This document shows positions 7,367 through 8,610 of a stretch of 64,000 nucleotides of DNA, in pieces. The translations under genes and the position numbers were made by a program. The stretch is from Isoetes taiwanensis (taxonomy: Eukaryota > Streptophyta > Lycopodiopsida > Isoetales > Isoetaceae). The notes beneath the pieces were generated by a model. The model was not told the DNA's origin and ran no database searches. It saw only the letters and a list, made by a program, of their open reading frames with translations. How positions within the stretch are numbered: position 1 is the stretch's first letter; each line of letters starts with the position of its first letter. The stretch is from positions 310,556-374,555 of the forward strand of contig JAJEKV010000299.1 in assembly GCA_021234155.1 (NCBI GenBank), given 5' to 3'.

Positions 7367-8610
7367 CTAAGGATGCTCCCCCCGAATCCTACGGGCGAGG
7401 GCCAAATCCTTAGGCATTATGGTTACCCTCTTTGCGTGGATTGCGCAAAGATTGGCGTCACCAAAAAGTGCCACCAAGTAGGCTTCAGCAACCTCTTGGA
7501 GTGCCAAAATTGCAAAGGTCTGGAAACGGAGGTCGGTCTTGAGCTCGCCGCGGCGATCTCCGTACCGACCTCGGAAGGGTAGCTTCCGGATGGAAAGGCT
7601 GTGTGGACTTACGGAACTTGCGGATTTCCGCAAAGGCCCGCGATACGGGGTCGGTACTGTGAGGCTTCCTCTATGGCGGGAGGCCCGGCGAGGCGGCCCG
7701 TCGATCTTTGGCCTTGTCTTAGCCCCAACAGCCGGTCGGGAGCTATCCACCCGCTGCTGCCTCCGATCAGAGCTCGCCTTCTTTCCAAAGGCCCCGACAG
7801 TCCTTAGTTTCTCTTTATACTGACTGCCGGTCTTTCGGGCTAGACCCTTCCTCCGGTGCTTAACGGTCACATGCGTGGGGATTGGGCCCGGCCCACTCCC
7901 TGATGCTCCTCCGTCTTGTGGGTTCAGCTGGTCCTACCGATCTCGCTCCTCCTGTTCGAGCTTCTCCCGTTCCTCCCGGGCTCTCCTCAGATCTTCTTGA
8001 ATGTCGAGCAAAAGGCTTTTAGCGTCCCGGCGATTAAGTTGACTTGAGTGCCGGCGTGGCGCATACCCATATCTATCTGAATGGTTGTCAGATAGTCTAG
8101 GCTGATATCGGGGATTTCTCCCCATATAAAACTGCTGGAGTCCTCATGCCAGCGGTATGGGGGAACTTCAATGGCCCTGCCATCGATGACGGCAAAGCCG
8201 TCGCCGAGGTACCTGTATTCCCTTCCCCGGGCCGCCGTATCTGCTCGCTCAATCTCCCGATGATCATCCTCTCTAGCCAAACTCCTGACACGGTCGGCCT
8301 CCGTCCTGATGTCTTCCTCCTCGGTATGGCCTTCCTGCTCGGGAGGATAGAATTTAATGAGCATCATGACCATGTCAGGTTGCTCAACAATGGTATAAGA
8401 AAGCTGGCGAAGGTTCAGCCGGATCAGGAATGGCTCCGAGAAATGGTAGATAGGATAGGGAATCCTATCGTTATTCTCAAACTGGTTCACCAATTCATCC
8501 AAAAGGATGTCGATGAAAGCCGGGTCTGTAGCCATGTACCGGGCGATCATGGCATAAATCTCCACTATGCTTAAGGTAGAAGGGTCCGGAGCGCTCTTGG
8601 TATGGGCCAT
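7367..8610 (-). pseudogene. Fusion ORF ending in a histone H3 fold, carried in the LTR element
   Basis: Chosen start is MAHTKSAPDP at 8,610. About 180 residues of unknown acidic sequence follow (motifs ARYMATDPAFIDILLDELV, REYRYLGDGFAVIDGRAIEV), then after a frame change near 8,100 a charged helix (DIQEDLRRAREEREKLEQEE). A stop at about 7,934 interrupts the same frame, after which come a Gly/Ser/Pro linker, a basic stretch and the H3 core. Visible H3 landmarks are IRKLPF, KTDLRFQ, ALQEVAEAYLVALF, ANLCAIHAKRVTIMPKD and LARRIRGE, ending near the usual H3 C terminus. The alpha-N helix (AEIRKFRKST, an H3 motif) lies in a neighbouring frame, so there are at least two frameshifts in the H3 part. 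The tail upstream of the core is basic but not the canonical ARTKQTARKS tail. Known: H3 forms the nucleosome core. Inferred: the element once encoded an N-terminal domain plus H3. A chance H3 retrocopy insertion is the main alternative; continuity of frame across the linker argues against it. Confidence 0.75.

What the first reader, a model, noticed from the sequence alone, without database searches (positions are those of the whole stretch)
7367..8610. Histone H3 fold at the C terminus of an ORF inside an LTR retrotransposon
Seen: minus-strand H3 landmarks (IRKLPF, KTDLRFQ, ALQEVAEAYLV, AIHAKRVTIMPKD, LARRIRGE) follow, in the same frame apart from one stop, a coiled helix and a Gly/Ser/Pro linker that belong to a larger ORF starting at 8,610. 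Known: H3 is not a standard LTR-element protein. Inferred: the element captured an H3 and fused it to its own protein, perhaps to bind or mark chromatin at insertion sites; the same element ends in a chromodomain, which reads H3. This would be a new type of retrotransposon-encoded chromatin protein.
Basis: partly seen in the sequence, partly recalled or inferred. Interest (0 to 1): 0.92.

Follow-up and report, generated by a model that had tools for sequence, protein, structure and literature searches.

The report
Jumping gene that encodes histone H3
A large family of virus-like jumping genes in what is very probably a quillwort genome carries, as a part kept intact by selection, its own version of histone H3 (a protein that packages DNA) fused to a protein of its own, which suggests it may alter the packaging that the plant uses to silence it.

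Summary
The finding is real and bigger than reported. Window 7367-8610(-) is a decayed copy of an accessory ORF ("ORF-A") of a Ty3/gypsy chromovirus: LTR-PBS-[N-domain+coil+linker+histone H3]-ORF-B-ORF-C-gag-pol-chromodomain-LTR, with a 5-bp target duplication. Host inferred: the quillwort Isoetes taiwanensis. The window copy is broken, but 14 of 30 loci fetched encode the 404-414 aa fusion as one open frame ending at the natural H3 end. Pooled dN/dS over 31 copies is 0.13 (N-domain 0.09, H3 core 0.10; off-frame controls 1.3-2.8). Sister subfamilies with similar integrase but N-domains only 37-42% identical also end in H3: an old, maintained fusion. The H3 core (84-87 of 99 residues as plant H3.3) aligns without gaps; no H3 tail is recognisable upstream of K36/K37. 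Besides 15 canonical H3 genes (97-99%), 135 further matches (72-87%) were listed (capped list). Lone-retrocopy and passenger readings are excluded; H3-less relatives were not demonstrated, though six sites stay open. Best mechanism (inferred, untested): a tail-less nucleosomal H3 that shields the element from silencing. Precedent found: H3 in fungal hAT DNA transposons.

The parts
9395..11040 (-). 5' LTR (TGTGATG...TCACA); flanked outside by GCTTG, which recurs after the 3' LTR (5-bp target duplication). The 3' LTR lies beyond the window edge (contig C902, locus L031)
   Evidence: 5' vs 3' LTR 91.2% over 1678 bp; ends and target duplication; coordinates
9381..9393 (-). primer binding site TGGTATCAGAGCC (initiator Met tRNA type; the type is recalled)
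   Evidence: exact TGGTATCAGAG in 25 of 35 oriented copies
10471..10484 (-). splice-donor-like AAAG|GTAAGT inside the LTR (inferred)
   Evidence: same site in all four LTRs examined
8758..8772 (-). pyrimidine tract + CAG, splice-acceptor-like, upstream of ORF-A (inferred)
   Evidence: [CT]AG kept in 13 of 16 copies printed; position
8035..8610 (-). ORF-A N-terminal domain (no known family); starts at ATG 8610
   Evidence: 90% identical to the L008 copy over 192 aa; no Pfam, no PDB relative at E below 0.6, no protein-database relative at E up to 10; dN/dS 0.086
7601..7985 (-). ORF-A coiled helix and Gly/Ser/Pro-rich basic linker, TAG stop at 7934-7936 in this copy; the last part (about 7601-7690) covers the out-of-frame N-terminal part of the H3 core
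   Evidence: linker dN/dS 0.253
7367..7600 (-). ORF-A histone H3 core (in-frame part), ending at the natural H3 C terminus
   Evidence: Pfam E=1.2e-20, PDB, tblastn 7600-7370
7169..7185 (-). pyrimidine tract + TAG, acceptor-like, directly before the ORF-B ATG (inferred)
   Evidence: AG kept in 17 of 18 copies printed
5872..7172 (-). ORF-B, conserved accessory ORF of unknown fold (broken here; 432 aa or more open to the locus end in several other copies)
   Evidence: no Pfam family above cut-off in 3 copies scanned, no PDB relative at E below 0.39
5541..5556 (-). acceptor-like site before ORF-C (inferred, window copy only)
5093..5583 (-). ORF-C, accessory ORF of unknown fold (166-aa open frame in the L008 element)
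   Evidence: no Pfam
3556..4360 (-). gag region with zinc knuckle (CYRCMRPGHYMQNC at 3703-3744)
   Evidence: Retrotrans_gag E=2.3e-4, below curated cut-off; zf-CCHC_2 E=7.8e-4, below curated cut-off; motif place
2888..3559 (-). aspartic protease
   Evidence: RVP_2 E=1.8e-11
1227..2876 (-). reverse transcriptase / RNase H / integrase zinc region (several frame breaks)
   Evidence: tblastn of the L033 pol ORF; RVT_1 fragment below cut-off; RVT_1, RNase H and Integrase_H2C2 above cut-off in L033
118..1329 (-). integrase core and chromodomain (chromo motif 262-333)
   Evidence: tblastn; Chromo E=3.1e-5, just below cut-off; in L033 SH3_Tf2-1 above cut-off, rve 32.5 vs cut-off 32.6 bits, Chromo above cut-off

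Best explanation
SHOWN: a Ty3/gypsy chromovirus lineage carries, between primer binding site and gag, an accessory ORF whose protein is an element-specific N-terminal domain, coil and basic linker fused to a complete histone H3 core. The fusion is kept by purifying selection and occurs in subfamilies with very different N-domains. INFERRED: the protein enters nucleosomes with H4 as an H3 variant without a recognisable H3 tail, and therefore without the usual K4, K9 and K27 sites. The N-domain, coil and linker keep it near the element's own chromatin or carry a partner protein. Such nucleosomes cannot receive H3K9 methylation in the usual context and, by analogy with H3.3 and the Arabidopsis placeholder MGH3, would resist replacement by silencing-type nucleosomes. 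The element thereby delays or reverses its silencing. It is probably expressed from a spliced subgenomic RNA (donor in the LTR, acceptor before ORF-A).
For: Fusion in one frame in 14 of 30 loci fetched. dN/dS 0.129 whole, 0.086 N-domain, 0.095 H3 core, with off-frame controls 1.31-2.75; for the H3 core dN goes only from 0.027 to 0.040 while dS goes from 0.107 to 0.565; ML omega 0.118 / 0.250 / 0.154 for N-domain / linker / H3. H3 core ungapped, 76 of 99 columns identical to plant H3.3 in all 14 intact copies, 10 fixed replacements. Same fusion in sister subfamily F2 whose N-domain is 37-42% identical (67/179, 41/97, 66/166) while the H3 core keeps 80-85 of 99. H3 tail not recognisable upstream of K36/K37: in the 4 copies tested, 131-988 of 1000 shuffles score as well. 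Arabidopsis work (PMC10529913; abstract, section list and passages seen): H3.3 nucleosomes limit DNA methylation without DDM1, DDM1 replaces H3.3 by H3.1, H87 sets H3.3 assembly specificity, MGH3 resists DDM1. Plant TEs can encode anti-silencing proteins (VANC; search listing and starts of abstracts).
Against: No expression, localisation or nucleosome data. Residue 87 is Phe in all F1 and F2 copies aligned, so the route of deposition is unknown and H3.3-type recognition may be lost. An ARK[ST] motif occurs in the linker of several copies but not in others, so some K9-like modification is not excluded. N-domain fold unknown (single-sequence model mean pLDDT 44). The element also has a chromodomain, which is recalled to favour H3K9me chromatin and sits uneasily with anti-silencing.
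Confidence: 0.45

Rival explanations
1. Integration-site tether: the H3 part docks into or next to nucleosomes and the N-domain/coil binds the element's integration machinery, steering insertion together with the chromodomain.
Against: A chromodomain already supplies targeting; ORF-A is a separate upstream ORF, not part of pol; nothing shows that ORF-A and integrase interact.
Confidence: 0.2
2. Packaging or cDNA-chromatin role: the H3 module recruits H4 and histone chaperones to load nucleosomes on, or compact, unintegrated element cDNA, with the N-domain as a particle or capsid adaptor.
For: ORF-A lies upstream of gag together with ORF-B and ORF-C; residues recalled as DNA-contacting or at the H3-H3' interface are kept.
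Against: No gag-like similarity of the N-domain in Pfam or PDB profile searches; LTR retrotransposons are not known to need histones of their own (recalled).
Confidence: 0.12
3. Dominant poison of host chromatin: abundant tail-less H3 enters host nucleosomes genome-wide and loosens silencing in trans.
Against: How many copies are expressed is unknown; only 14 of the 30 best-hit loci keep the whole ORF; a specific N-terminal domain under strong selection argues for a more specific task.
Confidence: 0.15
4. Passenger: a host H3 retrocopy or captured gene fragment without function, carried along by the element or inserted alone into it.
For: Captured gene fragments are known in plant LTR elements (passages of PMC7264820); the window copy itself is broken.
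Against: Purifying selection on N-domain and H3 alike; target duplications lie outside the LTRs in both elements read; linker+H3 conserved together in 150 listed places; same layout in sister subfamilies.
Confidence: 0.01

Closest known systems
H3L ORF of hAT DNA transposon, Pyrenophora tritici-repentis (Manning et al. 2013, PMC3538342; passages seen)
   Same: A mobile element carries an H3-like ORF with ESTs, in tens of copies
   Different: DNA transposon with terminal inverted repeats; H3 is a separate ORF, not fused to an element domain; copies very similar and described as recently expanded; no test of selection in the passages seen
hAT transposons with captured H3 in Pseudocercospora fijiensis and relatives (Dhillon et al. 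2019, PMC6710886; abstract and passages seen)
   Different: Captured copies inactivated by RIP; DNA transposon; not maintained by selection
Plant LTR retrotransposons with additional ORFs (review PMC7264820; passages seen)
   Same: Accessory ORFs beside gag-pol, some captured
   Different: The review's conclusion concerns ORFs between pol and the 3' LTR; the word histone does not occur in its main text
Chromoviruses of non-seed plants, e.g. Tcn1-like (PMC2864245; passages seen)
   Same: Ty3/gypsy with chromodomain in lycophytes, Isoetes among the genera sampled
   Different: No additional ORF mentioned in the passages seen; clade of the present element not determined
VANC proteins of Arabidopsis VANDAL elements (PMC5735166, PMC10398659; search listing and starts of abstracts)
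   Same: Works like: TE-encoded anti-silencing factor (proposed analogy)
   Different: DNA transposons (recalled); sequence-specific anti-silencing proteins, no histone fold mentioned in what was seen
Viral histones: giant-virus doublets, bracovirus H4 (search listing and starts of abstracts only)
   Same: Selfish or viral genomes that encode core histones; bracovirus H4 alters host gene expression
   Different: DNA viruses; not LTR retroelements; histones not fused to a retroelement domain in what was seen
MGH3/HTR10 placeholder H3.3 of Arabidopsis sperm (PMC10529913; abstract and passages)
   Same: Works like: H3.3-class nucleosome that resists DDM1 remodelling (analogy only)
   Different: Host gene, no fused domain

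Membership tests
Ty3/gypsy chromovirus | two LTRs with short target duplication | tested here: met
   LTR pairs 91.2% (window element) and 93.3% (L008 element) identical; target duplications GCTTG and CTTCT
Ty3/gypsy chromovirus | pol order PR-RT-RNaseH-IN | tested here: met
   Pfam domain order in L033 and window tblastn
Ty3/gypsy chromovirus | C-terminal chromodomain on integrase | tested here: met
   Chromo E=3.9e-8 in L033, above cut-off; 3.1e-5 in the window, just below cut-off
Ty3/gypsy chromovirus | placement in an RT tree | not tested
   no tree made; clade (Tcn1, Galadriel, Tekay, Reina, CRM) not assigned
histone H3 | histone fold with H3-type loops and C terminus | tested here: met
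   Pfam E=2.5e-40 for the L008 ORF-A; ungapped core, best PDB chain H3.3 7ux9_E E=1.3e-51
histone H3 | N-terminal tail with K4, K9, K27 | tested here: not met
   no similarity to the H3 tail above shuffles in four tested copies
CENH3 (centromeric H3) | divergent, longer loop 1 and CATD (recalled) | tested here: inconclusive
   core has no gaps and is 84-87/99 identical to plant H3.3, which argues against CENH3, but no CENH3 sequence was put in the comparison
H3.3 versus H3.1 | residues 31, 41, 87, 90 | tested here: inconclusive
   87 is F in F1 and F2 and H (H3.3 type) in F3; Y41 and L90 occur in both host H3 types read; 31 not present
H3-carrying hAT transposon | terminal inverted repeats and hAT transposase | tested here: not met
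   element has LTRs in direct repeat and retroviral-type pol

The most novel reading that the evidence does not exclude
A retroelement lineage has turned a host core histone into its own nucleosome-forming protein and couples it to exchangeable N-terminal domains: a self-encoded, tail-less histone variant that builds silencing-resistant nucleosomes on the element's own DNA.
Probability: 0.35. Interest if true: 0.95.

Novelty: new variant of a known kind. Interest (0 to 1): 0.87.

Why it matters
Core histones are among the most constrained host proteins, and TE silencing acts largely through H3 tails and H3 variants. A retrotransposon that has kept its own H3, without a recognisable tail and fused to a domain of unknown kind, is a direct handle on whether selfish elements fight silencing by supplying the nucleosome itself. 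It makes testable whether H3 variant exchange (H3.3/H3.1, DDM1, HIRA) is a battleground between plants and retroelements, in an early-diverging vascular plant lineage. It is also a caution for annotation: 135 of the 150 H3 matches listed in this genome are non-canonical (72-87%) and by identity look element-type, so automatic histone counts there may be inflated.

Tried and rejected
Lone H3 retrocopy in the element: rejected. Linker and H3 are conserved together over about 188 aa in 150 listed places, under selection, and target duplications lie outside the LTRs in both elements read to the ends.

H3-tail mimicry at the protein's N terminus (M-A-x-T-K resembles M-A-R-T-K): considered and dropped, since subfamily F2 (L071) starts M-P-R-F-K. 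Remnant H3 tail in the linker (R-T-K, S-T-G-G-K in F2): dropped as proof, since shuffled linkers score as well in 131-988 of 1000 trials over the four copies tested.

N-domain identity: Pfam, PDB profile (only row E=0.6), two protein-database searches (limited to lengths near 207 aa, full length, residues 1-285) gave nothing. A single-sequence AlphaFold2 model had mean pLDDT 44, so no fold search was made. N-domain versus ORF-B profile comparison: no relation, probability 0.1%.

Gag-pol inversion as the normal layout: the L008 copy has gag-pol inverted inside its LTRs. Of 19 other copies read at the expected offset, 16 have same-strand family DNA (15 gag-pol, one, L043, the pre-gag region), none is inverted, 3 have no match (L047, L050, L053). 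Among the 20 integrase sites, one (L065) shows an opposite-strand pol at the place read (nested element or inversion, not resolved).

One search read 13 minus-strand loci in the wrong orientation; corrected. In one search the L070 row was cut one residue short and its identities are meaningless; one search is the valid alignment.

Host identity is inferred from assembly statistics (1658.30 Mb, N50 17.40 Mb, 204 scaffolds + 909 contigs in PMC8566536; against 1,658,258,908 bases, 1110 contigs and a 17,402,236-base contig), not from a named record; the contig numbers differ by three.

Literature: 10 searches answered, eight of them about TE-borne histones, accessory ORFs or the host. Only the top rows of each were seen; no paper listed reported a retrotransposon-encoded histone by title or start of abstract. 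Subscription papers and preprints are largely not covered. Searches were rejected for malformed terms.

Full report
OBSERVATION. The minus strand of window 7367-7933 encodes a histone H3 fold (Pfam Histone 1.2e-20; PDB H3 2.6e-28), preceded in frame by a coil and a Gly/Ser/Pro linker with one stop (TAG 7934-7936). The N-terminal domain starting at ATG 8610 lies in another frame in this copy. So the window copy is broken: a frame break between N-domain and coil, one stop, and apparently two short stretches of the H3 part out of frame.

ELEMENT. The feature sits in an LTR retrotransposon. The 5' LTR is window 9395-11040; the 3' LTR lies just outside the window (L031), 91.2% identical over 1678 bp. 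The two ends are flanked by the same five bases, GCTTG. A TGGTATCAGAGCC primer binding site follows the 5' LTR. Downstream come ORF-A (the N-domain-H3 fusion), ORF-B, ORF-C, gag with zinc knuckle, protease, RT/RNase H, integrase and a chromodomain. Several window fragments fall below Pfam's curated cut-offs; in the L008 element (L033) RVT_1, RNase H, Integrase_H2C2, protease, SH3_Tf2-1 and Chromo are above theirs and rve is 0.1 bit below. It is a chromovirus by domain order and chromodomain; its clade was not determined.

HOST. The window lies in a 1,658,258,908-base assembly of 1110 contigs. Published statistics of Isoetes taiwanensis are 1658.30 Mb, N50 17.40 Mb, 204 scaffolds plus 909 contigs (PMC8566536, passages), and one contig here is 17,402,236 bases. 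I infer that species, a lycophyte. No record name was seen and the contig number differs by three.

OTHER COPIES. A search with the 188-aa linker+H3 listed 150 scored matches of 8053 first-look candidates, 64-79% identical apart from the query itself, most over almost the whole length; by my count 26 of the 150 rows have an internal stop. A search with 196 aa of the N-domain listed 150 of 3483 candidates. Of the 30 loci fetched, 14 encode the fusion from the M-A-x-T-K start to the H3 stop in one frame (404-414 aa); one more (L003) is open through H3 but lacks the stop there. Alignment A1 of the 14 has mean column identity 92%.

SELECTION. Pooled Nei-Gojobori dN/dS over 31 copies (35 distinct copies fetched; L001 = window copy, L017, L021 and L022 dropped as broken or rearranged) is 0.129 for the whole ORF, 0.086 N-domain, 0.166 middle+coil, 0.253 linker, 0.095 H3 core; the same stretches read off-frame give 1.31-2.75. 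Between close pairs (dS about 0.11, 13 pairs) H3-core dN is 0.027; between distant pairs (dS about 0.57, 243 pairs) it is only 0.040. That is the pattern of strong constraint on active lineages plus neutral decay after insertion. Maximum-likelihood omega (GY, iqtree): 0.118 N-domain, 0.250 linker, 0.154 H3. The 31 copies were best hits, hence biased to well-preserved ones; pairs share history, so they are not independent; the single pair window copy against L008 gives 0.356, as expected for a decayed copy.

IS H3 AN INTEGRAL PART? At 19 copies chosen from the N-domain list, a 1.5-kb stretch 5.5-7.0 kb downstream was read: 16 of 19 carry family DNA on the same strand (15 gag-pol, 1 pre-gag), 3 of 19 no match, 0 inverted. 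Conversely, a search with integrase plus chromodomain listed 95 of 35,014 candidates. Twenty of these whose ORF-A was not in the lists were read at the expected ORF-A place: 10 of 20 carry ORF-A N-domain and/or H3, 3 of 20 carry ORF-B or ORF-C/gag there (shifted offset), 1 an opposite-strand pol, 6 of 20 nothing recognisable. For one of the six (L061) an N-domain is listed 17.6 kb upstream of the integrase on the same strand, perhaps the same element with an insert. H3-less relatives are therefore not demonstrated, but these sites stay open.

SISTER SUBFAMILIES. Three of those (L071, L076, L078; 'F2') have N-domains only 37-42% identical to that of the L008 copy (41/97, 67/179, 66/166) yet end in the same H3 (80-85 of 99 core residues as the two F1 copies compared) and have integrases 93-94% identical to that of L008. 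L070 ('F3') has a third linker and an H3 with H87. The five element rows share V89I, T107A and I124L against plant and host H3.3. A single old capture, with the 5' module since diverged or exchanged between pol lineages, fits best.

THE H3 PART. 99 core columns align without gaps to plant H3.3: 76 identical in all 14 intact copies; 10 fixed replacements (Y54F, S86T, H87F, V89I, G102A, E105G, T107A, I124L, Q125A, A135P); 84-87/99 identical to H3.3 and 82-86/99 to H3.1. Residues recalled as DNA- or histone-contacting (R40, R42, R49, K64, R69, R72, R83, R116, T118, K122, C110, H113, D123) are unchanged in all 14; R63 is K in one copy. Upstream of K36/K37 no H3 tail is detectable above shuffles in four copies tested. 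The best PDB chain is 7ux9_E, an H3.3. The genome list holds 15 canonical H3 genes at 97-99% to H3.3; the other 135 of 150 listed matches (of 9031 candidates) are at 72-87%; many of these coincide with ORF-A places, but not each was checked. Of four host proteins read, one differs from plant H3.3 by D77E alone (L081) and three by T31A, D77E, H87S (L082-L084). H3.3 ancestry is suggested by H87 in F3 but not proven, since Y41 and L90 occur in both host types.

THE REST OF THE PROTEIN. The N-domain has no relative in Pfam, PDB or 5.8 billion proteins; no usable fold model. It is element-specific as far as these collections reach; eukaryotic genomes without annotated proteins were not searchable.

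EXPRESSION (inferred). All four LTRs read contain AAAG|GTAAGT. A pyrimidine tract ending in [CT]AG lies before ORF-A in 13 of 16 copies, and a tract ending in AG before ORF-B in 17 of 18; base changes that keep AG (L026, L029) fit a splice acceptor. Upstream of ORF-B TGACGTCA stands in 15 of 18 copies printed, often with ATAAAAGG after it, so an internal promoter is possible. No RNA data were available.

MECHANISM. Shown: an intact, selected H3 core at the C terminus of an element protein. Established elsewhere: in Arabidopsis DDM1 promotes replacement of H3.3 by H3.1, H3.3 deposition prevents DNA methylation in ddm1 mutants, H87 sets H3.3 assembly specificity, and MGH3 resists DDM1 (PMC10529913, abstract, section list and passages). 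Inferred: ORF-A protein forms nucleosomes that lack the tail sites for H3K9 methylation and resist remodelling, so it works as a self-encoded anti-silencing nucleosome; N-domain and coil give specificity. Alternatives are tethering for integration, packaging of cDNA, or general disturbance of host chromatin. The chromodomain at the other end, recalled to favour H3K9me chromatin, is a tension: the element may land in heterochromatin and need protection there.

KNOWN WORK. H3 carried by transposons is known from fungal hAT DNA transposons: a separate H3L ORF in Pyrenophora (PMC3538342, passages) and RIP-inactivated copies in Pseudocercospora and relatives (PMC6710886, abstract and passages). Viral histones are known from DNA viruses (search listing). 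Among the papers listed by my searches none reported, by title or start of abstract, a histone encoded by a retrotransposon. Hence 'new variant of a known kind', close to a new kind.

LIMITS. One genome; best-hit sampling; host inferred; no tree; no expression or biochemical data; unresolved integrase sites; copy numbers come from capped lists.

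Noticed in passing
L008/L032/L033 (G000:C919:1552000-1566000): Element with perfect 5-bp target duplication (CTTCT) whose 5-kb gag-pol block is inverted relative to its LTRs and ORF-A to ORF-C; none of 19 other copies sampled is inverted at the place read.
   Followed up: partly
window 5872-7172(-) and 5093-5583(-); L008:2264-3559, L033:286-783: Two further conserved accessory ORFs (ORF-B, at least 432 aa; ORF-C, 166 aa) between the H3 ORF and gag with no Pfam family above cut-off and, for ORF-B, no PDB relative.
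   Followed up: partly
L071, L076, L078 versus L008: Integrase 93-94% but N-domain 37-42% identical: mosaic history of 5' module and pol. Also dS 0.10 in PR-RT against 0.24 in ORF-A between window and L008 copies.
   Followed up: partly
upstream of ORF-B, e.g. window 7180-7260(-): TGACGTCA palindrome in 15 of 18 copies printed, often followed by ATAAAAGG and a CT-rich stretch before the ORF-B ATG: possible internal promoter.
   Followed up: no
window 8896-9078: Two 75-bp direct repeats (79%) in the leader between primer binding site and ORF-A.
   Followed up: no
window 12248-13868: 227-bp direct repeats (96%) 1394 bp apart flank gag-like ORFs with a CCHC knuckle (12846-13514): looks like a small non-autonomous LTR element (recognised by eye).
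   Followed up: no
window 19100-25600 and 46893-53600: Two plant L1-type LINEs (endonuclease and RT-like ORFs, by eye).
   Followed up: no
window 37729-38997: Direct repeats with about 440-bp period.
   Followed up: no
genome-wide; L081-L084: 15 canonical H3 genes listed at 97-99%; the H3.1-type host proteins read (L082-L084) have Y41 and L90, the residues of the H3.3 reference used here.
   Followed up: partly
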